This document shows positions 1 to 12,741 of a stretch of 12,741 nt of DNA, piece after piece; position 1 is the first letter of the stretch; the number at the start of each line of letters is the position of its first letter. The notes beneath the pieces were generated by a model. The model saw only the letters and a list, made by a program, of their open reading frames with translations. It was not told where the DNA came from and did not search any database. A program made the translations under genes and the position numbers. Source of the DNA: Legionella longbeachae (GTDB lineage: Bacteria > Pseudomonadota > Gammaproteobacteria > Legionellales > Legionellaceae); contig JACPOX010000058.1 of assembly GCA_016191305.1 (NCBI GenBank), positions 1-12,741 on the forward strand, given 5' to 3'.

Positions 1-1160
1 ATTGTGTCGATACTTTGAAATTTTTGTTTGAAAAGCACAACGTAAAACTTACAGATTATGAAGCAGTACGTTTGGCAATTTTATGGAATCGATTAGCTAT
101 TCTCCAATTATTTGAAGAAAAATTTAATATTATCGAAAAGTACTTTAAGGAAAGTACTCTAGAGGCAGTAGAATATTTGATAGAGAAGGCAAATCCTGAA
201 GTTTGTTCTTATTTATTACAAAATACTGAAGTAAAAAAACAATTATTGCTCAATAAACATCGCCTGATGTATCATCTTATTTATCATGAACGCTTTGAAA
301 TTATCCCCACTTTACTTTCACATGAGGTTATTGATCTCAATATAAAAATACACCCAAGTTGTAATCTCAATATAATTTCTAGGCACGAAGTCGCTTGGAT
401 GCATCCCCTACCCAGGACTCCATTTATTGTCCGTGAGCCACAAGATAAGTATAGTATTTGGGGTTTTAATGGGATCTGTTGGCAATTTACTCCACTCAAG
501 CATCTTACTCCTACATGGTGGGATGGCTATAGGAAGGATACATGGATAACACCTTTCAACTTAGGCGAAGATTTATTTAATGAAATACATCAAGGCCATG
601 TTGTCCCTATGCGTTCTTTAGTTTACATACTCACACAACACATGCTCACTTCTTTTGAAGCACGCAAAGCATTAATATTTTGTTTAATGAGAGGAGGAAC
701 TAATATCCATTCAAATAGTCTTGAAATACCTCATTTGGAAGAGTTCAATGAGCATTTTGAAGACTCTACTCAGCGTATCTCTATGTTAAATAAGAAATTT
801 GATAAGGAAGAAAACCCTTCCAAAGTTAAATTTTCTTATTGTCTCCAAAGATTAGGTCAATTTTCCGAAAAAATGTTGCAAAAAAATTTATCTCAGCAAC
901 TTAAAGAGCAGGTAGAGCTTGCATTATGTTCGAATGAACCATTGAAAAAAATCATTGAACGTTCAGAACAAACAAAACTGAATGCCTTGGGTTTTTTCTC
1001 CTCTTTGTTCCGTTTAGATAAAAACGATCAACACATGAAAATACCCTCTTACCTTAAAAAAATAATATTCTTAAAGAGCATAGGCATTACGAGTGATTCT
1101 AGTGCTGCTGCAGAAGTTTTAGATAATGATTCAGTAGAAAGGATACTAATGAAACTTTAG
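1..1160 (+). CDS. Effector-like protein, 3' part; tandem paralog of the next gene (partial)
   Basis: The frame is open from base 3 and reads CVDTLKFLFEKHN before any start codon. This matches residues 335-347 (CIDTLKFLFEQHN) of the downstream paralog, so the gene begins outside the window and the TTG at 15 is not its start. The visible part is about 385 residues, collinear with residues 335-722 of the paralog and roughly three-quarters identical by eye. The paralog has about 5 extra residues near its residue 595. Conserved parts are helical ankyrin-like sequence, a Trp-rich stretch around TPFIVRE and YSIWGFNG, and a near-identical C-terminal tail ending SVERILMKL. No catalytic motif or membrane segment was recognised. 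By paralogy it probably carries ankyrin repeats upstream of the window. A Dot/Icm-type secreted effector is plausible in Legionella but is inference. A hairpin with a T-tract follows the stop. Confidence 0.85.
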   Translation, partial: CVDTLKFLFEKHNVKLTDYEAVRLAILWNRLAILQLFEEKFNIIEKYFKESTLEAVEYLIEKANPEVCSYLLQNTEVKKQLLLNKHRLMYHLIYHERFEIIPTLLSHEVIDLNIKIHPSCNLNIISRHEVAWMHPLPRTPFIVREPQDKYSIWGFNGICWQFTPLKHLTPTWWDGYRKDTWITPFNLGEDLFNEIHQGHVVPMRSLVYILTQHMLTSFEARKALIFCLMRGGTNIHSNSLEIPHLEEFNEHFEDSTQRISMLNKKFDKEENPSKVKFSYCLQRLGQFSEKMLQKNLSQQLKEQVELALCSNEPLKKIIERSEQTKLNALGFFSSLFRLDKNDQHMKIPSYLKKIIFLKSIGITSDSSAAAEVLDNDSVERILMKL

Positions 1161-1229: not shown

Positions 1230-3398
1230 ATGGACGTTCTTATGCAAAATATCACCACTCAAAACCTGATTCAACTGTCAGAAATAGACTTTCAAAATTT
1301 TGAAGAAGCTTTACAAGTTCAAAAAGCTATTTTGCCCGATAATTTCCTGCAATGGGATAAAGAGACCTGGGAAAAGGCGATATTAATGTTCTTTCCCTTC
1401 TTCAATAAAAATTTTATGAAAGAAGGGGTAGCGGAACTTCGTAAAAACACTCTCTTTGGTTGGCATGATGATTTCTTAAACTTTGAGATGGTATTGGGTC
1501 AAGTTGGATTGTTTTTTCAACTCAAGCAATGTTATTTCGATCGACTGAGTCCTATAGGAAAAAAATTATGGTTTGATATTATCACAGCTGATGTTAATGC
1601 ACTTATTTCATCGTCTATAGCACCTAGTCAATTGTTTTCATGGCGCGATAAAGATCCATTCGAAGTCTTAGACGACTTGGAATCCTCTCCATGTGAATTT
1701 GTCAATACAAATAGTACCTTGTCAAGGGCATTATTCCAAAACATCCAGAACACCTTTGAAAAAAATCTCTCTAAAGAGAGTGATCTTAGGCAAGATGAGC
1801 AAGGAAGAACGTTGCTTCACTATGCAGCTGCACTGGGTATCACTGATATTTGCTTATCTTTTAGTAGTCAAGATTATCTAAAGAAAGATTATAAAGGGCG
1901 GACGCCTATTGAATATGCTATATGCTTTAAACAACAAGAATGTGTTCTAAAAATATTATCATCCCAAAAAATATCAGAGCCTGTAATAGAAAGCAGTGGA
2001 GTGAATTTAACAAAACTTGCAATACATTTTCATTTATTTGACGTGGTTGCTGTCTTGATAGAGCAAGAGTCGGTACTGAAAGAAATTACTACAAATAATA
2101 ATGCAATTTTCACAGAGATTGCACGTGCAGGTCAGCATCTACTTCTTAAAAAACTCAGAAATCATCCTGAGATTCTCAATCTCATCAAAATATCAGGGGA
2201 TGAAACTCTTCAAGCACTTGTCGTAGGTGCCTGTATCGACACTTTAAAATTTTTGTTTGAACAGCACAACATAATTCCAGATTATAATGCAGTGCGCTTG
2301 GCAATTTTTCATAATCAATCAGCTATTCTCCAATTATTTGAAGAAAAATTTAATAGTATCGAAGCGTACTTTAAGGAATGTACGCTAGAGGCATTAGATT
2401 GCTTGATATCCAGAGCAACTCCTGAAGTTTCTTCTTATTTATTACAAAATGAGGAAGTAAAAAAACAATTAGTGTTCAATAAAAGTCGTTTGATGTATCA
2501 ACTTCTTGATGATGAACGATTTGATATTTTGCCCACGCTGATATCACATGGGGTTATTGATCTCAATATAAAAATACCCCCACCTCATGAGCTCGATATC
2601 GTTCCTAGGCACTTAGTCGATAATGAGTGGCATCCTCTATCCGATACTCCATTTATTGTACGTGAGGAACAAAATAAGTATAGTATTTGGGGCTTTAATG
2701 GAACTTGTTGGCAATTCACTTCACTCAAGCATCCTGCTCCTGTTTGGTGGGGTCGCAATAATGACACATTGATATCACCAATCAACTTAGGTGACAATTT
2801 ATTTAATGAAATACATCAAAGCCATGTTTTTCCTGTGCATTTTTTGGTTTACATACTCACACAACACATGCTCACTTCTTTTGAAGCACGAAAAGCCCTA
2901 ATATTTTGTTTGATGAGAGGGGGAGCTAATATTCATTCAAACAGCCTTGAACTACCCCATTTGGAAGAGTTCAAAGAGCATTTTGAAACCTCTAGCCAGA
3001 GTATCTTTTTATTGCAAGCCCTCTTAAACAAAAAATCTGATGAAAAAGAAAACCTTTCCAAAGTTAAATTTTCTTATTGTCTCCAAAGATTAGGGCAATT
3101 TTCCGAAAAAACTTCACAACATGGTTTATCTCAGCAACTTAAAGATCAGGTAGATCTTGCATTATGTTCGAATGAACCATTGAAAAAAATCATTGCAAAT
3201 TCAGAGCAAACAAAAGAGAAAGCTTTTAGCTTTTTCTCGTCTATGTTCTGTTTAGGTAAAAACAATCAACACATGAAAATACCATCTTACCTAAAAAAAA
3301 TAATATTCTTAAAGAGCATAGGCATTACGAGTGATTCTAGTACTGCTGCAGAAGTTTTAGATAATGATTCAGTGGAAAGGATACTAATGAAACTTTAG
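1230..3398 (+). CDS. Ankyrin-repeat effector-like protein (complete paralog)
   Basis: 722 residues. Two ankyrin-type repeats are recognisable at about 191-245: GRTLLHYAAALG, then KGRTPIEYAICFKQQECVLKIL. Degenerate helical repeats probably follow to about 380. Residues 467-507 form a Trp-rich segment (W467, W487, W494, W506, W507) shared with the upstream paralog. No signal peptide, membrane segment or enzyme motif is visible. The start is uncertain: the ATG at 1230 has no Shine-Dalgarno, while the in-frame ATG at 1242 (MQNITTQN) has GGACG 5 nt upstream and may be the real start. The C-terminus, SVERILMKL, is hydrophobic/charged as in many Dot/Icm substrates, but that is weak evidence. Ankyrin repeats mediate protein binding, so a host-targeted effector is plausible and unproven. 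The last 15 bases overlap the convergent transporter gene. Confidence 0.88.
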   Translation: MDVLMQNITTQNLIQLSEIDFQNFEEALQVQKAILPDNFLQWDKETWEKAILMFFPFFNKNFMKEGVAELRKNTLFGWHDDFLNFEMVLGQVGLFFQLKQCYFDRLSPIGKKLWFDIITADVNALISSSIAPSQLFSWRDKDPFEVLDDLESSPCEFVNTNSTLSRALFQNIQNTFEKNLSKESDLRQDEQGRTLLHYAAALGITDICLSFSSQDYLKKDYKGRTPIEYAICFKQQECVLKILSSQKISEPVIESSGVNLTKLAIHFHLFDVVAVLIEQESVLKEITTNNNAIFTEIARAGQHLLLKKLRNHPEILNLIKISGDETLQALVVGACIDTLKFLFEQHNIIPDYNAVRLAIFHNQSAILQLFEEKFNSIEAYFKECTLEALDCLISRATPEVSSYLLQNEEVKKQLVFNKSRLMYQLLDDERFDILPTLISHGVIDLNIKIPPPHELDIVPRHLVDNEWHPLSDTPFIVREEQNKYSIWGFNGTCWQFTSLKHPAPVWWGRNNDTLISPINLGDNLFNEIHQSHVFPVHFLVYILTQHMLTSFEARKALIFCLMRGGANIHSNSLELPHLEEFKEHFETSSQSIFLLQALLNKKSDEKENLSKVKFSYCLQRLGQFSEKTSQHGLSQQLKDQVDLALCSNEPLKKIIANSEQTKEKAFSFFSSMFCLGKNNQHMKIPSYLKKIIFLKSIGITSDSSTAAEVLDNDSVERILMKL

Positions 3399-3404
3399 AG
3401 GGAG
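2230..3404 (+). repeat. Second copy of a >1.1-kb tandem gene duplication
   Basis: This stretch aligns end to end with bases 1-1166 and the left limit lies outside the window. Identity is moderate through most of the length. It becomes near-perfect in the last ~110 bases and continues 6 bases past both stop codons (AGGGAG) before stopping abruptly. Downstream of that point copy 1 has a terminator hairpin and copy 2 has the intergenic repeat described at 3404. Confidence 0.85.
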
Positions 3405-4712
3405 TAGGTTGGGCCTCTTGCCCAACATGAACATCGGCCTGACATATAGCCCTTTGTTGGCAATGCCTTTGGTATTTAACAATTGTGAGAGTACCGTTTC
3501 TTTTTTTTCAGGCCAGGGATAATGCAAGATAAGAGTAGAGACATAGACATTAGGTTTCATCGAAACAGAAACAATTAGCCATATTACGCATAATACGGCA
3601 TTTGTTATAAAAATACCCTGACTGCCACTCCATTGAAATAAAAGACCTGCAAGAGCTCCACCAGTAAAAAGTCCAAGAAATTGGCTGGTAGAATAAATTC
3701 CCATTGCAGTACCTTTGCTATTGGGGGTTGCTTGTTTGGATACGAGTGATGGTAATGATGCTTCAAGTATATTAAAGGCAATAAAATAGACCAACATAAC
3801 TATGCACAAGATGAACCAATTTTGGAATGTATAAGCTAGTAATAATTGAGCGGCGGCTGTAACGAGTACAGATGAAACAAAGATACTCTTCATTCTTTTT
3901 TTCTTCTCAGCGAGCAAAATGAACGGGATCATGAGAATGAATGAAAAAAGCATAATAGGTAAATAAAAATGCCATTGCTGTGATAAATGCCCTTGTATCA
4001 CTTGTTTATTTAAGATAAAGGGAATAGCAAAAAATGTTGATGTTAGAATGAAATGCTGGCAAAAAATACCAAGATTAAGTCGTAACAGGTGTCGATTAGA
4101 TATAACTTGTTTGAATAAGGCAGGATTTGTTTCACTGTCGACATGAAAGCGTTCGCTTACTGGTTTGGGGATTAACAAATGAAGTAAGAGGATGCCTAAT
4201 ATGGCTAAAATAGTGGTTAGATAAAAAATACCTGCCAAACCAAATCGGTGGGTTACGGCTGGACTAATAACCATAGCTAAGCTAAATGAAGTGCCTATAG
4301 TCATGCCGATAACCGCCATAGCTTTAGTGCGCTGTTCATCCGGTGTTAAATCAGCAAGCAATGCAATTAACACACTACCAATTGCTCCGGTGCCTTGCAG
4401 GGCTCTGGCACCTATCATTCCATAAATAGAATCAGTCAATGCGCCAAGCAAACTTCCACAAGCAAACAGGATTAAACCTAAAGTAATCATTGGTTTTCTG
4501 CCCAGTTTATCGGAAAGCATGCCAAAAGGCATTTGCAAAAGGCCTTGAGCGAGACCATAAACTCCTAAAGCGAAACCTACCAGTGCCGGTGTTGCATAAT
4601 GTAAGTTTTCTGCATAAAAGCTAAAAACGGGTATGAGTAAAAATAAACCCAACATGCGAAAAGAAAAAATTGCAGCAATAGGAAAGACTGTCTTAGACCA
4701 GGAATACTTCAT
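3384..4712 (-). CDS. yajR: YajR-family MFS transporter with replaced C-terminal tail
   Basis: 442 residues with the 12-helix major facilitator pattern. Motif A, GMLSDKLGRK, is at 64-73. R103 lies in GARALQGTGAIGSV (motif B), and TM5 reads GMTIGTSFSLAMVISP (136-151). Segments such as FSFRMLGLFLLIPVF, ALQGTGAIGSV, NILEASLPSLVSK and GTAMGIYSTSQFLGL agree with E. coli YajR as I remember it. YajR ends in a cytoplasmic ferredoxin-like YAM domain. Here that domain starts at about 387 (YVSTLILHYPW) but is recognisable only to about NTKGI (417). Residues 418-437 come from the intergenic repeat at 3404-3460, and the final PLKFH is antisense to the end of the ankyrin-type gene. The predicted product is an inner-membrane proton-driven exporter of unknown substrate with a damaged or altered YAM domain. 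The Shine-Dalgarno before the ATG is weak. Confidence 0.9.
   Translation of the reverse strand: MKYSWSKTVFPIAAIFSFRMLGLFLLIPVFSFYAENLHYATPALVGFALGVYGLAQGLLQMPFGMLSDKLGRKPMITLGLILFACGSLLGALTDSIYGMIGARALQGTGAIGSVLIALLADLTPDEQRTKAMAVIGMTIGTSFSLAMVISPAVTHRFGLAGIFYLTTILAILGILLLHLLIPKPVSERFHVDSETNPALFKQVISNRHLLRLNLGIFCQHFILTSTFFAIPFILNKQVIQGHLSQQWHFYLPIMLFSFILMIPFILLAEKKKRMKSIFVSSVLVTAAAQLLLAYTFQNWFILCIVMLVYFIAFNILEASLPSLVSKQATPNSKGTAMGIYSTSQFLGLFTGGALAGLLFQWSGSQGIFITNAVLCVIWLIVSVSMKPNVYVSTLILHYPWPEKKETVLSQLLNTKGIANKGLYVRPMFMLGKRPNLLPLKFH
3404..3460. repeat. Intergenic repeat, copy A (right end missing)
   Basis: 57 bases that match 6313-6369 without gaps at 47 of 57 positions. It starts GTAGGTTGGG and ends TTGTTGG. 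It contains a perfect 7-bp stem, GTTGGGC (3408-3414) and GCCCAAC (3420-3426), with a 5-nt loop. Unlike copy B it lacks the closing CCAACCTACA end. Read on the minus strand it supplies about 19-20 C-terminal codons of the yajR-like gene. Confidence 0.8.
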
Positions 4713-5036: not shown

Positions 5037-5792
5037 ATGAGTTTGGTTTTTGCAAATAAAGTAGGGTTAATTACTGGTGGTGCACGCGGTATTGGTAAGG
5101 CGACTGCATTAAAATTAGCTCAGTCAGGTAGTGATATTGCAGTAATTTATTACAACAGTTCTGATGAAGCTCAGGCTTTAGTGGCAGAAATACAGGCTAT
5201 GGGCCGCAAAGCAATCGCTTTACAAGCTAATGTTGCAGATCATCAGTCCGTAAAGGAAATGTTCGCAGAATTTAGAAAGCACTTTACCCATCTTGACTTC
5301 TTGATTAGCAATGCTGCCAGTGGTGTATTAAAACCAGCCTTGAAAATGACCACCAAACATTGGCGTTGGTGTTTGGAGACTAATGCTTTAGCCTTAAATC
5401 ATTTGGCTTCAGAAGGTCGAACCTTAATGCCTAAAGGCAGTCGAGTTATTGCCTTATCTAGTCTTGGTGCTCATCGTGCTATTCCCAATTATGCATTTAT
5501 AGGTGCATCTAAAGCTGCTCTGGAAGCTTTAGTGCGCTCGCTGAGTCTTGAACTTGCAGTCGATGGTATTACGGTGAACACTGTTTCTGCAGGTGTGGTT
5601 GATACAGATGCACTAAAGCATTTTCCTAATAGAGAGCACTTGTTAGCTGAGTATCAAGCTCACTCTTTGGCTGATAGACCTTTGACACCTGAAGACGTTG
5701 CTAATACCATTTATTTACTGTGCTTGCCCGAAGCCTCTATGATTAATGGGCATACCTTATTTGTTGATGCAGGGTATAGCCAGATTGGTTAA
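5037..5792 (+). CDS. fabL: FabL-type enoyl-ACP reductase (SDR family)
   Basis: 251 residues, a full-length classical SDR. The nucleotide-binding TGGARGIG is at 13-20, NAASG at 92-96, SS at 141-142 and the catalytic pair is Y152 and K159. The spacing Y-x6-K is that of enoyl-ACP reductases (FabL, FabI) and not the Y-x3-K of ketoacyl reductase FabG. NAASGVLKP, the SSLG motif, SKAALEALVRSL and DTDALKHFPNRE closely resemble Bacillus subtilis FabL, an NADPH-dependent, triclosan-tolerant enoyl-ACP reductase. It would carry out the last reduction of each elongation round in the cytoplasm. The ATG has GAGGAA (5025-5030) 6 nt upstream. It lies 88 bp before the ACP gene on the same strand and probably serves the same pathway, though a separate promoter follows. 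A ketoreductase role is possible but less likely from the motif. Confidence 0.88.
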   Translation: MSLVFANKVGLITGGARGIGKATALKLAQSGSDIAVIYYNSSDEAQALVAEIQAMGRKAIALQANVADHQSVKEMFAEFRKHFTHLDFLISNAASGVLKPALKMTTKHWRWCLETNALALNHLASEGRTLMPKGSRVIALSSLGAHRAIPNYAFIGASKAALEALVRSLSLELAVDGITVNTVSAGVVDTDALKHFPNREHLLAEYQAHSLADRPLTPEDVANTIYLLCLPEASMINGHTLFVDAGYSQIG

Positions 5793-5832
5793 AACTCTTT
5801 CACGCTTAATTTTATGCCTTTAAAAAAATCTA

Positions 5833-5841
5833 TGATATAAT
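5833..5841 (+). promoter_or_regulatory. Extended -10 promoter of the acp operon
   Basis: TGATATAAT is a perfect extended -10 (TGnTATAAT) 39 bases before the ACP start codon. No good -35 is seen, which an extended -10 can tolerate. A GC-rich discriminator, CGGGC (5844-5848), follows at once. That composition is typical of promoters under stringent (ppGpp) control, but this regulatory reading is inference. Confidence 0.55.
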
Positions 5842-5880
5842 TTCGGGCTTTGTAAATTAGCTGATTTCTGAGGAACAAAT

Positions 5881-6294
5881 ATGAATATAGCCGACGTTTA
5901 TCCTAAAGTTAGGGAAATTGTTGCTGACGTGCTAGTGATTAATACAGACGAAATTTCTCTCAATAGTCGTTTGATAGCAGATCTGGGCGCTGAATCGATT
6001 GATTTTCTTGATTTAGTTTTCCAATTGGAAAAAGAATTCAAAATTAAAATTCCTCGCGGTCAATTGGAGAAAAATGCACGCGGTAATTTGGCAGAAGAGG
6101 AATTTGAGAAAGGTGGTGTATTAACTCCTCAAGGGTTAAATGCTTTGCAAAACTATTTAACTGAAGTTCCTGCGGAGCAATTCAAGCCCAATATGAAGGT
6201 TAACGAAATACCGATGCTGTTTACGATTGAAACTTTTTGTAAGTTAGTTGTTAGTGCTGTGACAGCACAACAAGCTGTTGCATCTGAAGCGTAG
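5881..6294 (+). CDS. Long, AcpXL-like acyl carrier protein
   Basis: 137 residues against about 78 for the housekeeping ACP. The four-helix ACP core occupies about 1-75. The phosphopantetheine attachment site is S39 in DLGAESID (34-41), followed by FLDLVFQLEKEFKIKIP, the pattern seen in specialised ACPs such as rhizobial AcpXL. Residues ~75-137 form an extra C-terminal region (LTPQGLNALQNYL, then IPMLFTIETFCKLVV) absent from the primary-metabolism ACP. It is likely loaded by a 4'-phosphopantetheinyl transferase encoded elsewhere and holds the growing acyl chain for the downstream dehydratase and ketoacyl synthases. The ATG has GAGGAA 5 nt upstream. It is the first gene of the operon. The ACP assignment is firm; the very-long-chain role is inferred from context. 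Confidence 0.92.
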   Translation: MNIADVYPKVREIVADVLVINTDEISLNSRLIADLGAESIDFLDLVFQLEKEFKIKIPRGQLEKNARGNLAEEEFEKGGVLTPQGLNALQNYLTEVPAEQFKPNMKVNEIPMLFTIETFCKLVVSAVTAQQAVASEA

Positions 6295-6311
6295 GAAATT
6301 TAGCTTTAAAA

Positions 6312-6388
6312 TGTAGGTTGGGTCCCAGTCCCAACATGAATACCAGCCTAACATATGGCCCTTTGTTGGGCCAGGGCGCCAACCTACA
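6312..6388. repeat. Intergenic repeat, copy B (complete, inverted-repeat ends)
   Basis: A 77-bp unit bounded by perfect 10-bp inverted repeats, TGTAGGTTGG (6312-6321) and CCAACCTACA (6379-6388). Internal hairpins are possible at GTTGGG/CCCAAC (6317-6322, 6330-6335) and near 6365-6383. Bases 6313-6369 match copy A at 3404-3460 at 47 of 57 positions. It fills most of the 153-bp gap between the ACP and dehydratase genes, so it would be transcribed in the operon mRNA as a stable fold. No transposase is present. Confidence 0.8.
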
Positions 6389-6447
6389 AAACTGGAACCG
6401 TGGATTAGTACGAAAATTTTGGTACTCAAGAGGCGTAATAGATACTG

Positions 6448-7344
6448 ATGAGATTCTTATTTGTTGATCGTATAGTGGAGTCATCTCCTGGTCAGTTGAT
6501 TCGGGGAGTGAAACATATTACTTCAGATGATACGTTCCTCACAGTTGACGATGAGGAACGTCCTTGTTTTATCCCTTCTTTGATTGGTGAAACTCTGGGA
6601 CAATTGGCTGCATGGAATGTAATGCAGTTCCTGGATTTTACTCGCAGACCTGTTGCAGGTATTGTTGCTAGTGCGTCTTTGCATCGTCCTGCCTATGTAG
6701 GTGAGACTTTATTACTTCAGTCGTTAATTAATCATTTAGATGATTCGGTAATGCAATATCATAGTGAGGCAAGGGTAGGTGATGAACTTGTTTTCAAGTT
6801 AGAAGGAGCCATAGGCCCTTTATTGCCTATGGATGATTTTATTGATTTGGATGAGGTAAAACAGCAATTTACTGAAATTAATCATCCTGGCGATTGGTCG
6901 CTTATGCGTATGAACAGTTCGGCATCATTGAATGACGATCGGATTATGAACTTGGATTTGCCTAGATTTTCAATGACCTTTGATAAGATATGCTCCAGTC
7001 AACCAGGTGTTAGTTTAATTGCTGAAAAAAAAATCACCCGTGCAGCTCCTTATTTTCCGGATCATTTTCCCAAGAAACCTGTGTTGCCTTTAACTGTGCT
7101 GTTAGAATGCAAGTTGAATTTGGCACGTGAATTTATTGCCCGTGCTGAATATCCTGTAAATTATAAGGTTAGTGAGTTTCGCAAAATAAAAATGAATGAA
7201 TTTGTTCATCCGGGAGAAGTTCTCGAATGTTTTGTAATGGTCAAAAAACAAACAGAAGAAGAGTTGGTCTTAGCTTTTCGGAGCGAAGTAGCAGGTAAAA
7301 GAGTTTGTGTTGTGGATGTAGTGCTTATTCCCCGAGGTAAATAA
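6448..7344 (+). CDS. Tandem-hotdog 3-hydroxyacyl-ACP dehydratase (FabZ/FabA-like)
   Basis: 298 residues, about twice a FabZ monomer, readable as two hotdog domains (about 1-125 and 165-298). The C-terminal half keeps the FabZ active site: H206 in DHFPKKPVLPLTVLLE and E220, the 14-residue His-to-Glu spacing of FabZ. The N-terminal half keeps the matching Glu (E48 in IGETLGQLAA) but has Asp34 where His is expected, so it is probably structural or substrate-binding. The expected reaction is dehydration of 3-hydroxyacyl-ACP to trans-2-enoyl-ACP. The start is set by an in-frame stop at 6439-6441. The nearest purine-rich stretch, AAGAGG (6428-6433), is 14 nt away, so translation initiation looks weak. 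The next gene starts 1 nt after its stop codon. Confidence 0.85.
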   Translation: MRFLFVDRIVESSPGQLIRGVKHITSDDTFLTVDDEERPCFIPSLIGETLGQLAAWNVMQFLDFTRRPVAGIVASASLHRPAYVGETLLLQSLINHLDDSVMQYHSEARVGDELVFKLEGAIGPLLPMDDFIDLDEVKQQFTEINHPGDWSLMRMNSSASLNDDRIMNLDLPRFSMTFDKICSSQPGVSLIAEKKITRAAPYFPDHFPKKPVLPLTVLLECKLNLAREFIARAEYPVNYKVSEFRKIKMNEFVHPGEVLECFVMVKKQTEEELVLAFRSEVAGKRVCVVDVVLIPRGK

Positions 7345-7345
7345 A

Positions 7346-8644
7346 TTGAAAAAAAAACGAGTGGCTATTACAGGTTTGGGAGCAGTTTCACCAATTGGTC
7401 TTGATGTTCAGTCTACGTGGTCCAACTTGCTGTTAGGACAGTCTGGAATAGCTGAAATCAAGCAATTCGATGCCAGTAATTTTCCAACTTATATTGCAGC
7501 TGAAGTAAAAGACTTTAGGCTTAATCCCGCACTACTTTCAAAGCGTACGCGTTTTTCTTTATCATTTACCCAATATGCTCTTGAAGCGGCACAACAAGCC
7601 TTTGATGATGCAGGTATTTTACCGAATGAGCAGACGGCATCGCATTGGGGAGCTGTTACAGGTAGCGGTATGATGACGGCCGAATTTGATTATCTGTCCC
7701 GATTCCAACAAATTTGTGCCCTGGACGGTGAAGTAGATTGGGGGCGTTTGCAAGCGAACGCTCAAGATTTTTATAAACTCTCTGATTTTGGTAAAACAAC
7801 CCCTAATTCAGGCTTGTCTTTATTGACCCAACAGTTTGGAATCAGAGGTTATGCTTCTTCAGTACATACAGCCTGTGCTTCAGGCGGTCAGGCTTTGGGA
7901 TTGGCGATGCAAGTGATTCGTCGTGGAGAAGCTGATTTTATGCTCGCTGGAGGCTTTGATTCAATGATAAGTCCTTTTGGTTTATCCAGCTTTTGTTTGC
8001 TAGGTGCTTTGTCTACTTATAACAGTACTCCAGAGACTGCCAGTCGACCTTTTGATGGGACACGGAATGGTTTTGTTTTGGGAGAAGGAGCTGCGTTTTT
8101 AATTCTAGAAGAGTGGGATAAGGCAAAAGCACGAGGTGCCCGTATTTATGCTGAGTTGGCTGGTGAGGTAAATTCTTTAAGTTCTTATCGTATTACTGAC
8201 TCCCATCCAAATGGGGACGGTGCAATTCAAGCAATAGAGCGCGCTCTTCAAGATGCTGGAGTGCGTGCTTCCGATGTGGATTACATTAATGCACATGGTA
8301 CCTCAACCAAAATGAATGATTTAAGTGAAACCAATGCAATTAAAGCAGTTTTTGCTGACCAGATTGCGCACTTACCTGTAAGCTCAACTAAAGGTCAAAC
8401 AGGACATCTTATTGCTGCAGCAGGCGCATTAGAGGCTGTACTGGCAGTTAAATCTATAGAAATGGCTCAAATACCTAAAACAGCTAATTTAACTACTCCT
8501 GATCCTGAATGTAATTTGGATTATGTAGTTGATGGGCCACGTGAACGTTCTTTAGGTGTAGTCTTGTCCAATTCTTTTGGATTTGGTGGCTCCAATAGTT
8601 GCTTGCTATTTAAGCACCCTGAATTCGAAGGAGCAGGTCGATGA
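7346..8644 (+). CDS. fabF: 3-oxoacyl-ACP synthase (FabF/KASII type), catalytic subunit
   Basis: 432 residues, a full-length condensing enzyme. The active-site triad is complete: C177 in TACASGG, H317 in AHGTST and H354 in GQTGHLIAAAG, with K349 and the GFGGSNS loop at 412-418. It condenses malonyl-ACP with an acyl chain. The start is TTG, supported by GAGG (7334-7337) 8 nt upstream and by the typical N-terminus KKKRVAITGLGAVSPIG. The start lies 1 nt after the dehydratase stop, and its stop overlaps the next ATG by 4 nt, so it is translationally coupled to both neighbours. Tight coupling to a second KS-fold protein lacking Cys suggests a KS/chain-length-factor heterodimer, not the housekeeping FabF homodimer. 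Confidence 0.93.
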   Translation: MKKKRVAITGLGAVSPIGLDVQSTWSNLLLGQSGIAEIKQFDASNFPTYIAAEVKDFRLNPALLSKRTRFSLSFTQYALEAAQQAFDDAGILPNEQTASHWGAVTGSGMMTAEFDYLSRFQQICALDGEVDWGRLQANAQDFYKLSDFGKTTPNSGLSLLTQQFGIRGYASSVHTACASGGQALGLAMQVIRRGEADFMLAGGFDSMISPFGLSSFCLLGALSTYNSTPETASRPFDGTRNGFVLGEGAAFLILEEWDKAKARGARIYAELAGEVNSLSSYRITDSHPNGDGAIQAIERALQDAGVRASDVDYINAHGTSTKMNDLSETNAIKAVFADQIAHLPVSSTKGQTGHLIAAAGALEAVLAVKSIEMAQIPKTANLTTPDPECNLDYVVDGPRERSLGVVLSNSFGFGGSNSCLLFKHPEFEGAGR

Positions 8645-9915
8645 GCCAGAACAATAGAGTATTTATTACAGGTCGAAGTGCATTAACCGCAACCGGCGCT
8701 ACTTCTGATGCGACTTGGGATGCTATTCTTACTGGTAAAAGTGGGATTGCTGAAATAACTCAATGGGATTTATCACAATGGTCTCATCGTTTGGGGGGAG
8801 AATTAAAAGATTTTCAACCTGCCAAAATGTTGCCTGACCGTAAATTATTCAAAGTCATTTCGCGTCAGGATGTACTAGGTATTAATGCCGCAGTCCAAGC
8901 AATAGAACACAGTCAAATGATTGCTTATCGTGATATGCTGGAGGATGGCAATGCGTTCAATGAACAAACAGCAGTTTTTATAGGATCACCTGGGAATAAA
9001 TATTTTCAACAATACGATTTCTTGCCCTTGCTTGCGAAAACTCAAGGAAATATGCACGATTTTGCGCAAAACTTATTTGAAGTGGTTCATCCAATGTGGT
9101 TGTTACGAATTTTGCCCAACAACGTTCTTGCATATACGGGTATTACTTACGGATTTAAAGGACCCAATCATAATATAACTAATCATGCAGTAGGTGGCAC
9201 TCAAGCCATACTCGAAGCCTATCATGCAATAAGTTCTGGTCAAGCAGATCGTGCTGTAGTGGTGGCCTATGATGTGGCTCTTGAACCACAGTCATTATTT
9301 TATTATGAACAATTAGGTGTATTGAGTGATCGTCATTTAAAACCTTTCGATGAGGATAGTGATGGTACTATTTTGGCTGAAGGGGCTGCTGCTCTGGTAT
9401 TAGAAAGTGAAGCCAGTGTTCGTGCACGCTCAGCAACTTGTTATGGTGAAATTATAGGGGGGTTGTCTACTACTGAAGCTCAAGGATTATTTTCTCTCGA
9501 TACCAGTGGTGAGCAATTGACAAAGTTAGTTCAGCGTACTTTAGATAGAGTGCAATTAAAGCCTCAAGATGTGGGTTTTGTTGTTGCTCATGGTAATGGT
9601 AATAGCAAATCAGATTATACTGAGTCTTATGCAATACAAAATGTTTTTACTGAACAAAAAATACCTGTTACCGCATTTAAGTGGTCTATGGGACATACTA
9701 TTTGTGCTTCTGGGCTGATTGATACGGTAATGGCGACTTATGCGCTTACATCAAAATGCGTACCCGGAATTGCTAATTTTCAACGTATTTCATCCAGTTG
9801 TGAAGGCTTGTCAGTGAGTGCAGATCATCAGCCTGTAAAAGCTCCGTACGCATTGACGATTAGCAGAGGATTTGCCAGTATAAACGCATGTTTGGTGGTT
9901 AAAGCTTGTGACTGA
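8641..9915 (+). CDS. Ketoacyl-synthase-fold protein without active-site Cys (chain-length-factor-like)
   Basis: 424 residues with the thiolase/KS fold along its whole length. The nucleophile Cys is missing: ungapped alignment with the upstream KS places A183 (NHAVGG, 181-186) at C177 (TACASG). Both His are kept (H317 in AHGNGNSK; H352 in SMGHTICASG) and so is K347, though the surrounding motifs are altered. Loss of Cys with retained fold is typical of chain-length factors (KS-beta) of type II polyketide synthases, which pair with a catalytic KS and set product length. Its ATG overlaps the KS stop (ATGA), favouring equal expression. It should be unable to condense on its own; a decarboxylase-like activity cannot be excluded. 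Rhizobial VLCFA clusters also carry two adjacent FabF genes. Confidence 0.85.
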   Translation: MSQNNRVFITGRSALTATGATSDATWDAILTGKSGIAEITQWDLSQWSHRLGGELKDFQPAKMLPDRKLFKVISRQDVLGINAAVQAIEHSQMIAYRDMLEDGNAFNEQTAVFIGSPGNKYFQQYDFLPLLAKTQGNMHDFAQNLFEVVHPMWLLRILPNNVLAYTGITYGFKGPNHNITNHAVGGTQAILEAYHAISSGQADRAVVVAYDVALEPQSLFYYEQLGVLSDRHLKPFDEDSDGTILAEGAAALVLESEASVRARSATCYGEIIGGLSTTEAQGLFSLDTSGEQLTKLVQRTLDRVQLKPQDVGFVVAHGNGNSKSDYTESYAIQNVFTEQKIPVTAFKWSMGHTICASGLIDTVMATYALTSKCVPGIANFQRISSSCEGLSVSADHQPVKAPYALTISRGFASINACLVVKACD

Positions 9916-10711
9916 TTTAGAGCGAAAAATCGATGAGTTGCCTATAAGCTTGTTAGGTCGAGTAATTTATAAGTTTTTACCCTATAAGCGGCAGGTGATT
10001 ATGGCCAATATTGATCGTGTTTACGGCAATCAATTAAATGCCGCGCAAAAAAAACGACTCGCTACATCTTATTATTCTCATTTACTCACATCATTTAAAG
10101 AAGCAATCCATTTACGTTTTATGTCTGAAGAGACTTTACGTAAAAAAGTAGAGGTTCGTGGTCATAAGAATATGTTGGACGTTGTGGCGCAACAAAAAGG
10201 AGTTTTAGTTCTTACAGGGCATTTTGGTAACTGGGAAGTGGCTCCCATTGGTGGAGTTTTAAATTTTAAAGAATTTCAAGGACAGTTTCATTTTATCCGC
10301 CGGACCTTGTCCATTAAATCTATTGAGCGCAGTTTATTTAAGCAATATTACCAGGCAGGTTTAAATGTTATTCAAAAAAAGAACTCTCTGGACAAAGTTT
10401 GCTCTGCATTAGAAAAAAATCACGCCGTAATCTTTGTTCTTGATCAACATGCCTCTTTGGCTAATCGCGATGGTATTGCTGTAGAGTCTCGTTATACTGG
10501 AGTGCCAGTAATTCCTGCAGCCGGTTACAGATTGCCAAATGGAAAACATGTTTTAGAATTTTATGATCCTATACCATGGAAAGATTATGGCAATACCACA
10601 GAATCTCTTTATCGTAATACGTTAGAGTATAACCAAGCGTTGGAGCGGATTATTTTGTCTCATCCTGAACAATGGAACTGGATGCATAAACGTTGGAAAC
10701 TTAAGTTGTAA
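9908..10711 (+). CDS. LpxL/HtrB-family lipid A acyltransferase, short form
   Basis: 267 residues; the family is usually about 290-310. It has the catalytic H-x4-E motif (H105 to E110, GHFGNWE), FIRR (129-132), DQ (179-180) and the C-terminal PEQWNWMHKRWK (253-264) typical of lauroyl/myristoyl transferases. It lacks most of the N-terminal hydrophobic anchor. About 17 residues that normally carry the FFG...A.T block also appear absent between E193 and S194: DGIAVE runs straight into SRYTGVPVIP. The GTG start overlaps the previous stop by 8 nt, has GGTGG 9 nt upstream, and no earlier in-frame start exists. The likely role is moving the long acyl chain from its ACP to lipid A at the inner membrane. 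The internal gap could impair activity or reflect a different acyl pocket. Confidence 0.85.
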   Translation: MTDLERKIDELPISLLGRVIYKFLPYKRQVIMANIDRVYGNQLNAAQKKRLATSYYSHLLTSFKEAIHLRFMSEETLRKKVEVRGHKNMLDVVAQQKGVLVLTGHFGNWEVAPIGGVLNFKEFQGQFHFIRRTLSIKSIERSLFKQYYQAGLNVIQKKNSLDKVCSALEKNHAVIFVLDQHASLANRDGIAVESRYTGVPVIPAAGYRLPNGKHVLEFYDPIPWKDYGNTTESLYRNTLEYNQALERIILSHPEQWNWMHKRWKLKL

Positions 10712-10732
10712 CACCTTAAGTGTTCATTTTTT
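10699..10732 (+). terminator. Putative terminator of the acp-acyltransferase operon
   Basis: Two alternative hairpins overlap the end of the acyltransferase gene. One is ACTTAAG (10699-10705) with CTTAAGT (10715-10721); the other is AACAC (10710-10714) with GTGTT (10720-10724). Six T residues follow at 10727-10732. The stems are AT-rich, so strength is uncertain. The 4-bp gap to the convergent gene leaves little other room for a terminator. Confidence 0.4.
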
Positions 10733-12741
10733 GATGAAAAGAATCAATATGTTCCACTATAAATCCATCTTCATCCTCTTTATGATTTATTTTGGCAAAT
10801 AATCCGCTTGCAAAACCTTTAGTCCAAATCTTTGCATTATTTACAAATTCACTAGCTCCACTAACGCATTCTGAGAGGATCTTAGATGTATTGACTACGA
10901 AATCAGTTGGAGTTTTGTCTTTTTCAGATATAGGAGTTTCCCCGCCCCTCAGTTCAGGCATCATACAATTTAATTCATCCGATACATATTTCAATTGATC
11001 TGAGTCTTGATTTACTTGCTCCATAAATCCCTGCACTTCACGGTATGATTTTTCTTTGAATGCTAATTCTAAAAGATGAAACTGATTTAGCACAAATGGA
11101 TTTTGATTTTCTTGTAACCAACGATAAAGTTCTCCATTTTTATTAGTATTTATTGCATGATGATACAAATTATGGATTTGCTGTCTTATAGTAAATTCAT
11201 TTTTAGGCATAGCTTGTAGCGAATATAAATCTAATGCTTTAATCAGGTCTGCATATTGTTCCTGTGTTGATAGAGGTTCCGTTTTGTTTAATAAAGTGGA
11301 AAGATCATTTTCTGGCTCCTGAGTAAGTAAGTTATTTTTTAATCTATTTTTTACTTTTGATAATTTCAAATTATTTTTTTCTAGTGTTAGTGATTCGGAG
11401 ACAACATACTCAGGTGAATTGGGTTTAAAAAATCCTCTCCATCCATAAATCCAGCACCTTCTTATGAATTTGATCAGATTAGAAAAGAAACCTTGTTTTC
11501 TGGTAAAACTTAATTCAAGTTTTGCCTCAAATAAAGCTTTTTGGGCAACTTGGATCAAGTCTTGATTTTTATCAGAATGAAGTTTCCGCAGTGCTACAGT
11601 ACATAAATCGATAACTCTTTGATAATTTTTTTCTCCTCCTTTTAAACCAAAATAACGAAGAATTCTTTTTGCATCAAATAAAAACAATTGATAACTGATT
11701 TGTTCATCAAAAAAAAAGGGATGTTGCAAAAAAGAGGTGAATATTGCTTCTTTAACTAGAGTATTCATTTCAGATCGTGTAAGCATAAAACTAATGTGAT
11801 GCATTAGTTTCGTACGATTCTTGCTATTTTCGGGTTGCTCATAATATGCCATGTATTCATCAAGTATCCTTGTGATTAACTCGGAGCTGCCTTGGTAGTG
11901 AAGTAAAAAATACTCAAAACAATTAATGGATCTGTTATATTTCATTAATTCTTCTGTAAAGGAATGTTCCTCTGAGGTAATTAACTGTTTTTGAGGTTTT
12001 ATTGGAGTGTTTCTTATATTTAAAAGTGTTTGTAGGAGCCCAGATTCTTTTTCAGTCTCTAAAACAACGGGATTTAATTGAATATTCTGCGCCATTCTTT
12101 GCGTATTTATCCTATTATTTTCATAGAATATCGCAATTTCAATAATATTGCTAATTATCAAGTCTTTTTGATAAGAGTCCATTTTGATCAATTCATCAAC
12201 TATATTAGTTCCAGCACATTTCATTAAATGTGCTAAGAGATTGTGGGCATTAGGCATCAAAGCAAAATGATATATCCAGTATGCAATAAATTCATGTTTG
12301 GGGTATCTTGTAATTAAGGCTTCTGTTTGTTCTCTAGTTAATTGATGGAAATGAGGAACGGAGCAAAGAATACTCACCGCTGCTTCTGGCTCTAATTGCT
12401 CAATCATGCTGGTCGTAAGTGTTTTTAAATCGAGTTGATGTACTAATGCATTGAGACGTGAAGGAATATGATTTTCCTTTGCATTCAGTCTATTTAAGAA
12501 TGAATTACCTTTTAAATTTGTAACGTATTCTTTTTTTCTCAATAAGTAAATGATTAACAAAGATTGTACTTCTTGGTTTTTAACAATTTGAATTGATTCT
12601 AGAATATCTGGAAGAGACAAATTCCTCTGATCGATAGTCATTAAAAAGTTTGCTTGGCACGATTTATCTTTAGTGATTTCTGTTAGATACTCTGGGTTTC
12701 CAATAGCTGCTTTGAATAGCTCAAAACTCTGTATTTTGCTT
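10716..12741 (-). CDS. Large effector-like protein of unknown function (5' end outside window)
   Basis: The first Met (12639-12641) would give 641 residues, but 33 further sense codons run without a stop to the right edge (reading ...FKAAIGNPEYLTEIT...NFLMTIDQ). That Met also has no Shine-Dalgarno, so the true start probably lies beyond the window. The protein is mostly predicted helix and rich in Leu, Asn and Lys, with no signal peptide or clear membrane span. A basic-aromatic patch at 380-407 (KQGFFSNLIKFIRRCWIYG) could bind membrane. The C-terminus has an acidic block, KEDEDGFIVE (621-630), resembling the Glu-rich signal of some Dot/Icm substrates. I recognise no domain. I recall uncharacterised Dot/Icm substrates at the comparable L. 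pneumophila locus but cannot confirm it. Base composition is more AT-rich than the adjacent biosynthetic genes. Confidence 0.8.
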   Translation of the reverse strand, partial: SKIQSFELFKAAIGNPEYLTEITKDKSCQANFLMTIDQRNLSLPDILESIQIVKNQEVQSLLIIYLLRKKEYVTNLKGNSFLNRLNAKENHIPSRLNALVHQLDLKTLTTSMIEQLEPEAAVSILCSVPHFHQLTREQTEALITRYPKHEFIAYWIYHFALMPNAHNLLAHLMKCAGTNIVDELIKMDSYQKDLIISNIIEIAIFYENNRINTQRMAQNIQLNPVVLETEKESGLLQTLLNIRNTPIKPQKQLITSEEHSFTEELMKYNRSINCFEYFLLHYQGSSELITRILDEYMAYYEQPENSKNRTKLMHHISFMLTRSEMNTLVKEAIFTSFLQHPFFFDEQISYQLFLFDAKRILRYFGLKGGEKNYQRVIDLCTVALRKLHSDKNQDLIQVAQKALFEAKLELSFTRKQGFFSNLIKFIRRCWIYGWRGFFKPNSPEYVVSESLTLEKNNLKLSKVKNRLKNNLLTQEPENDLSTLLNKTEPLSTQEQYADLIKALDLYSLQAMPKNEFTIRQQIHNLYHHAINTNKNGELYRWLQENQNPFVLNQFHLLELAFKEKSYREVQGFMEQVNQDSDQLKYVSDELNCMMPELRGGETPISEKDKTPTDFVVNTSKILSECVSGASEFVNNAKIWTKGFASGLFAKINHKEDEDGFIVEHIDSFHQKMNT

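What the first reader, a model, noticed from the sequence alone, without database searches (positions are those of the whole stretch)
5037..10711. Dedicated very-long-chain acyl assembly line, probably for lipid A
One strand carries enoyl reductase, long ACP, tandem-hotdog dehydratase, catalytic KS, Cys-less KS and LpxL-type acyltransferase, the last four with 1-nt gaps or overlaps. The order parallels the rhizobial acpXL-lpxXL cluster, which makes 27-hydroxyoctacosanoate for lipid A, and Legionella lipid A is known to carry 27-oxo-C28 and C27-dioic acids. The set differs from the rhizobial one by having a FabL-type reductase in place of the alcohol-dehydrogenase-like gene, a doubled dehydratase and a long ACP. 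No ketoreductase and no (omega-1) oxidase lies in the window, so those steps must be borrowed from elsewhere. The link to lipid A is inference.
Basis: partly seen in the sequence, partly recalled or inferred. Interest (0 to 1): 0.75.

Follow-up and report, generated by a model that had tools for sequence, protein, structure and literature searches.

The report
Legionella long-chain lipid A assembly line
Six neighbouring genes, kept together in most Legionella relatives examined, look like a dedicated production line for the unusually long fatty acids of their outer membrane, and their closest kin found so far are not the well-known rhizobial genes, though a remote shared origin is not excluded.

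Summary
In detail: 5037-10711 carries, on one strand, a FabL-type enoyl reductase, long ACP, double-hotdog dehydratase, catalytic KS, Cys-less KS and LpxL-type acyltransferase, the last four coupled. The Cys-less KS is in 57 of 57 Legionellaceae genomes searched; in 31 of 53 the cluster's acyltransferase is the only PF03279 protein found. With the published C27-C30 acids of Legionella lipid A, a very-long-chain lipid A line is the best reading; no product was measured. Descent from the rhizobial cluster is not supported: reductase, ACP, dehydratase, KS order and acyltransferase differ, and both KSs group with Streptomyces clusters; but AU tests do not exclude the rhizobial link. New here: versions with a ketoreductase in seven other genomes; an AcpS-LpxL fusion in four of four such proteins tested; a dehydratase whose Glu and His lie in different halves. 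The window's own acyltransferase lacks 15 residues that relatives have.

The parts
5037..5792 (+). FabL-type enoyl-ACP reductase (ER), 251 aa
   Evidence: NF005975 383.8 bits over cut-off 328; 3oic B. subtilis FabL 208.7 bits
5881..6294 (+). long specialised acyl carrier protein, 137 aa, extra helices after helix II
   Evidence: PF00550; insert shared with Burkholderiales-type and Streptomyces ACPs; model aligns with AcpXL 2kw2/3lmo over 132-133 columns
6313..6369 (.). dispersed repeat unit inside the ACP-DH gap, second copy at 3404-3460
   Evidence: 18 matches in the held genome at up to 3 mismatches, 0 for the reversed-pattern control
6448..7344 (+). double-hotdog 3-hydroxyacyl-ACP dehydratase (DH), 298 aa; Glu48 in the first hotdog, His206 in the second
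7346..8644 (+). catalytic beta-ketoacyl synthase (KS), 432 aa, Cys177/His317/His354
8641..9915 (+). Cys-less KS partner (chain-length-factor-like, CLF), 424 aa, Ala at the Cys position, both active-site His and Lys kept
9908..10711 (+). LpxL-type acyltransferase, 267 aa, H-X4-E motif; 15 residues shorter inside than relatives
   Evidence: PF03279 96.4 bits
3384..4712 (-). divergent MFS transporter, usual upstream neighbour (found in 40 of 56 named loci); part in the pathway unknown

Best explanation
A dedicated very-long-chain acyl assembly line for lipid A. The long ACP carries the chain. The KS/Cys-less-KS pair condenses malonyl units onto an acyl primer and probably sets the length; a FabG from elsewhere reduces the keto group; the fused dehydratase removes water with one active site made of Glu from its first hotdog and His from its second; the FabL-type enzyme saturates the bond; the LpxL-type enzyme then moves the finished C26-C30 chain from the long ACP to lipid A. 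(omega-1) oxidation happens elsewhere. Shown: the genes, their conservation, domain identities, catalytic residues, and a ketoreductase in the fuller relatives. Inferred: heterodimers, chain length, acceptor, use of another FabG. Kinship: the nearest relatives found are lines in Burkholderiales-type and Chromatiales-type genomes and, further off, Streptomyces type II clusters.
For: CLF orthologue in 57 of 57 Legionellaceae genomes and in 3 of the 35 other genomes. ACP, DH, KS, CLF and LpxL all hit in 49 of 56 named loci, ER within 302 nt of ACP in 36 of these 49. In 31 of 53 Legionellaceae genomes the cluster's LpxL is the only PF03279 match (places compared). [quoted passage not shown] Seven other genomes (L127, L129, L190-L194) hold the same line with a FabG-like KR between ER and ACP (two of the KRs checked). 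In 4 of 4 tested Burkholderiales-order proteins an AcpS domain is fused to the LpxL domain. KS Cys in 52 of 52 rows; CLF without it in 56 of 57, the exception being a truncated locus where the KS was picked. DH Glu/His split in 12 of 12 compared.
Against: No product, acceptor or activity was measured in anything I read. 22 of 53 Legionellaceae genomes have more than one PF03279 match (17 of them three, one five; G002, G011 and G030 two, in G011 because the gene is split), so the job may be shared there. A late acyltransferase outside PF03279 was not looked for. In the window the LpxL lacks 15 residues of a conserved stretch, so this copy may be broken or misassembled; the genome is 82% complete, so its single PF03279 match proves little by itself. 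No KR and no (omega-1) oxidase in the cluster. The seven genomes with the KR-bearing line all have further PF03279 matches and I know of no lipid A data for them.
Confidence: 0.75

Rival explanations
1. It is the rhizobial acpXL-lpxXL system, inherited or transferred: same genes, same origin.
For: Same functions in one cluster, both with a Cys-less second KS; all Cys-less KSs fall on one side of a branch, 97/95; AU tests do not reject Legionella KS with F1XL (p 0.352) or CLF with F2XL (p 0.413); the ACP model aligns with AcpXL structures over its length.
Against: AcpXL model 49.0 of 83 bits; the ACP insert is shared with Streptomyces and absent from the five AcpXL rows aligned; KS with Streptomyces KS1 at 100/96, CLF with KS2 at 91/81; different reductase family; single against double-hotdog dehydratase; LpxXL apart.
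Confidence: 0.15
2. It makes a polyketide or polyene-type secondary product that is anchored or released by an LpxL-like transferase, unrelated to lipid A.
For: In the plasmid collection the nearest KS, CLF, ACP and DH relatives found lie in Streptomyces type II clusters with FabD, KASIII and oxidoreductases.
Against: A FabL enoyl reductase would saturate the chain; no tailoring genes in the window's cluster; an orthologue in each of 57 Legionellaceae genomes searched, as a housekeeping trait would have; the acyltransferase is the only PF03279 match in 31 of 53 genomes.
Confidence: 0.07
3. The line makes the ordinary or branched C14-C20 secondary chains of Legionella lipid A, and the C27-C30 acids come from another elongase.
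For: Lipid A also carries eight non-hydroxylated C14-C20 acids; chain length cannot be read from sequence.
Against: Other FabF/FabB-type synthases exist in Legionella genomes; a second, specialised ACP, DH and ER for chains the basic system makes would be odd; the split DH and the KS-CLF pair resemble long-chain or polyketide machines.
Confidence: 0.08

Closest known systems
Rhizobial acpXL-fabZXL-fabF2XL-fabF1XL-adhlA2XL-lpxXL cluster (order from PMC11901934, passages)
   Same: dedicated ACP, dehydratase, catalytic KS plus Cys-less KS, LpxL-family acyltransferase in one run; very-long-chain lipid A
   Different: FabL instead of an MDR reductase; double split-site dehydratase; KS order reversed; ACP below the AcpXL cut-off with a further insert; LpxXL on a separate long branch
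KS-CLF type II polyketide synthases (highly reducing kind, e.g. ishigamide; PMC7949117, passages) and the Streptomyces plasmid clusters L163/L170
   Same: coupled KS and full-length Cys-less KS; long ACP with the same insert; two dehydratases matching the two halves of the fused one
   Different: here an enoyl reductase and a lipid A type transferase, no FabD, KASIII or tailoring genes; ishigamide sequences themselves were not in the tree
Aryl polyene clusters (ApeO-ApeC)
   Same: KS with a second KS-like partner, FAS-like set
   [quoted passage not shown] the two E. coli CFT073 KSs of that cluster do not group with either protein (long branches)
Bacillus subtilis FabL (3oic)
   Same: ER is a clear FabL by curated model and sequence
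   Different: sits in an acyl assembly cluster of a gammaproteobacterium
L. pneumophila lpg0359 (ACP) and lpg0361/lpg0362 (called FabB in PMC13200437, passages)
   Same: probably the orthologues: an L. pneumophila ACP (P0101) is 80% identical to the window's
   Different: the passages seen assign no long-chain or lipid A role; the link of lpg numbers to P0101 was not tested

Membership tests
rhizobial acpXL-lpxXL cluster | AcpXL (NF005079 over 83 bits) | tested here: not met
   49.0 bits, the best of the listed matches below the cut-off; 27 of 299 genomes pass
rhizobial acpXL-lpxXL cluster | FabF1XL / FabF2XL clades | tested here: inconclusive
   best tree puts both elsewhere; AU p 0.352 and 0.413 do not reject
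rhizobial acpXL-lpxXL cluster | second KS without the Cys | tested here: met
   Ala or Val here, Glu in 8 of 8 FabF2XL
rhizobial acpXL-lpxXL cluster | single-hotdog FabZXL with His and Glu in one chain | tested here: not met
   double hotdog, His and Glu split; three FabZXL rows for comparison
rhizobial acpXL-lpxXL cluster | LpxXL clade | tested here: not met
   7 LpxXL on one branch of length 2.47, 100/100, without the Legionella rows
rhizobial acpXL-lpxXL cluster | very-long-chain acid on lipid A as product | not testable with these tools
   needs chemistry; published for the genus
type II PKS KS-CLF pair | adjacent KS and Cys-less KS homologue, full length | tested here: met
type II PKS KS-CLF pair | heterodimer that sets chain length | not testable with these tools
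   no complex modelled or measured
aryl polyene KS-CLF | half-size CLF | tested here: not met
   424 aa with both Pfam KS halves; half size read in PMC8358021 passages
FabL enoyl-ACP reductase | NF005975 over 328 bits | tested here: met
   383.8 bits
LpxL/LpxM lipid A acyltransferases (PF03279) | gathering score and H-X4-D/E motif | tested here: met
   96.4 against 22.3 bits; motif read in the alignment (motif definition recalled)
LpxL/LpxM lipid A acyltransferases (PF03279) | transfer to a lipid A precursor | not testable with these tools
   no assay

The most novel reading that the evidence does not exclude
A second, separately evolved family of very-long-chain lipid A assembly lines exists: built from a KS-CLF pair, a split-site fused dehydratase, a FabL reductase and an LpxL transferase (with its own holo-ACP synthase fused on in Burkholderiales-type bacteria), kin to Streptomyces type II clusters; Legionellaceae fixed it and dropped its ketoreductase, and convergence, not descent, explains the likeness to rhizobia.
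Probability: 0.5. Interest if true: 0.68.

Novelty: new variant of a known kind. Interest (0 to 1): 0.55.

Why it matters
Legionella lipid A has long been known for its C27-C30 acids, a marker of the genus, but I found no paper that names the genes. That rests on the searches, in open-licence papers only, and I opened passages of few of the papers listed. [quoted passage not shown] the genes here suggest that another lineage does the work in Legionella. It also predicts very-long-chain lipid A in Burkholderiales-type and Chromatiales-type bacteria, for which I know of no lipid A data.

Tried and rejected
Aryl polyene origin: the two E. coli CFT073 KSs of that cluster do not group with these genes, but their branches are long. 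A ketoreductase hidden near the ACP in Legionellaceae: 36 of 49 loci have at most 302 nt between ER and ACP; in the seven with a wider gap (L058, L064, L067, L073, L075, L076, L081), in L069 (gap between MFS and ER) and upstream of the ACP in L063, L068, L074, L082, L083 and L084 I read the printed ORFs by eye and saw no SDR (not a family search). Cys replaced by His in the CLF: my first reading of the TNH motif; the gapless alignments put Ala at the Cys position and His one before it. Rfam: no match in the window at gathering thresholds. Promoter-like sites: 16 against 17.1 expected; terminator-like 11 against 5.0, spread over coding DNA; not used. Plasmid searches served to find relatives. 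Papers of Ardissone 2011 and Brown 2011 are not held. Searches gave no paper on this cluster. The cluster's LpxLs did not form one clade in the LpxL tree: L129/L131 and the Burkholderiales-type rows stand apart from the Legionella rows, with weak support.

Rows used and dropped. KS tree: window, 7 of the 56 named loci and 4 other loci on the Legionella side; L173 left out. ACP alignment for the model: 31 of the 119 other listed homologues and 12 loci; L073, L075, L077 dropped. DH alignment: 41 of 50 full-length loci rows; three over 310 aa and six near-copies dropped. LpxL tree: 7 of the named loci. Over-long ORFs were cut at their start before the trees.

Full report
What is there. The window is a whole contig (G000:C55) of a Legionella-type genome of 2.48 Mb in 323 contigs, 82% complete. 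Six genes run on the + strand: FabL-type reductase 5037-5792, long ACP 5881-6294, double-hotdog dehydratase 6448-7344, KS 7346-8644, Cys-less KS 8641-9915, LpxL-type acyltransferase 9908-10711.

Conservation. At the threshold, 85 of 92 genomes have some KS match. A clear orthologue of the Cys-less KS (E 1.2e-130 or better, 49-100% identity) is in 57 of 57 Legionellaceae genomes; of the 35 other genomes only G071, G080 and G085 have one (41-53% identity), the rest at most ordinary KSs at about 30%. In 56 named loci the order MFS(-), ER, ACP, DH, KS, CLF, LpxL recurs: 49 of 56 give ORF hits for all of ACP, DH, KS, CLF and LpxL (L052 in pieces); ER lies within 302 nt of ACP in 36 of these 49, 1.4-2.4 kb away in 7, and was not found in the held DNA in 6. 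Class-wide, 8 of 369 genomes match an alignment of the CLFs at E 1e-60, 4 of them Legionellaceae.

Link to lipid A. PF03279 was sought in 85 genomes; among the 53 Legionellaceae, 31 have exactly one match and in each it lies at the cluster (places compared; G000 is one of the 31 but incomplete). The other 22 have two to five, often a tandem pair elsewhere; such paralogues group beside the cluster's enzyme and far from E. coli LpxL/LpxM. [quoted passage not shown] A genome with one such late acyltransferase, sitting in an acyl assembly operon, and a lipid A with such acids make the link likely. It remains inference; acyltransferases outside PF03279 were not sought.

Fuller relatives. A search with the G071 protein (itself deposited as a Chromatiales bacterium) gave 2789 proteins, 120 listed; the few with names come from Casimicrobiaceae, most are unnamed metagenome proteins. 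Five of 399 genomes of a Burkholderiales-type order have it (the order's name is my inference from genome sizes and the Casimicrobiaceae names). These five, G071 and G085 carry ER, a FabG-like ketoreductase (42-44% to E. coli FabG), ACP, DH, KS, CLF, LpxL (NCBIfam of two of the seven KRs). G080 and G054 show no KR there, nor do the Legionellaceae loci as far as looked at. So the missing step was probably part of the ancestral line and is now served by another FabG in Legionella. In four of four proteins tested (L190, L191, L193, L194) the LpxL carries an N-terminal AcpS-type holo-ACP synthase (PF01648, 30.8-40 bits, cut-off 25); L192 and L127 were not tested, and L129 is too short for it. All seven genomes also have other PF03279 matches.

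Not rhizobial by descent, as far as tested. 27 of 299 genomes have AcpXL over the cut-off; the window's ACP scores 49.0 of 83. In a tree of 58 KS rows, Legionella KS goes with Streptomyces KS1 (100/96) and CLF with Streptomyces KS2, also Cys-less (91/81); FabF1XL and FabF2XL are elsewhere. Against this: AU tests do not reject Legionella KS with F1XL (p 0.352), CLF with F2XL (p 0.413) or CLF with aromatic CLFs (p 0.418); and all Cys-less rows fall on one side of a branch, 97/95. FabF2XL is Cys-less too, Glu in 8 of 8. Of the eight alphaproteobacterial loci, six show the MDR reductase (L119, L120, L122, L123, L125, L126), and L124 and L126 a FabG-like SDR; no FabL was found in the two SDRs tested. 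So: works like the rhizobial line, not shown to be a member of it; a remote shared ancestor is possible.

What is known. UniRef already names several of these ACPs AcpXL. A 2009 paper lists lpg0359 as an ACP and lpg0361/lpg0362 as FabB in a cerulenin experiment (PMC13200437, passages). No paper found ties the genes to the long acids (only open-licence papers are held, and most of those listed were seen as listings only).

A caution on this copy. The window's LpxL is 267 aa; relatives at the cluster are mostly 280-294 aa, and the difference is one 15-residue internal gap in a conserved stretch. Its PF03279 score is correspondingly low (90.5 bits; about 124-159 in the other 30 single-copy genomes). 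It may be a broken gene or an assembly fault; the explanation above rests on the family, not on this copy.

Noticed in passing
window 9908-10711: The LpxL-type gene lacks 15 residues, in frame, in a stretch that its relatives keep; either a broken copy or an assembly fault. Intact copies exist in relatives.
   Followed up: partly
window 3404-3460 and 6313-6369: A 57-nt repeat unit, 82% alike, one copy at the 3' end of the MFS gene and one widening the ACP-DH gap to 153 nt (45-50 nt in the eleven loci L033-L043); 18 matches in the held genome at up to 3 mismatches, 0 for the control.
   Followed up: partly
window 3-1160 and 1230-3398: Two neighbouring stretches, 82-88% alike in DNA over most of the first, coding for a large protein; the complete one has ankyrin repeats and a weak match to the AnkX model, so it looks like a Dot/Icm-type effector.
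   Followed up: no
window 10716-12641, minus strand: A 641-aa protein without a Pfam or NCBIfam match at E 0.001; a relative lies downstream of the cluster in many Legionella loci.
   Followed up: no
L190:10907-12151, L191:5917-7161, L193:7682-8944, L194:8418-9659: AcpS-type holo-ACP synthase fused to an LpxL-type acyltransferase at the end of the gene run.
   Followed up: partly
L124:4335-5114 and L126:4272-4997: Some alphaproteobacterial acpXL loci carry a FabG-like reductase, in L126 beside the MDR reductase.
   Followed up: no
G011:C1:553482-554326 and L052: In G011 the cluster's LpxL is in two overlapping frames, and in L. norrlandica L052 DH, KS and LpxL are recovered only in part; not examined further.
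   Followed up: no
L119-L126, FabF2XL: Rhizobial FabF2XL also lacks the active-site Cys (Glu in 8 of 8) and the first active-site His (8 of 8), so the rhizobial line too may use a KS with a non-condensing partner.
   Followed up: partly
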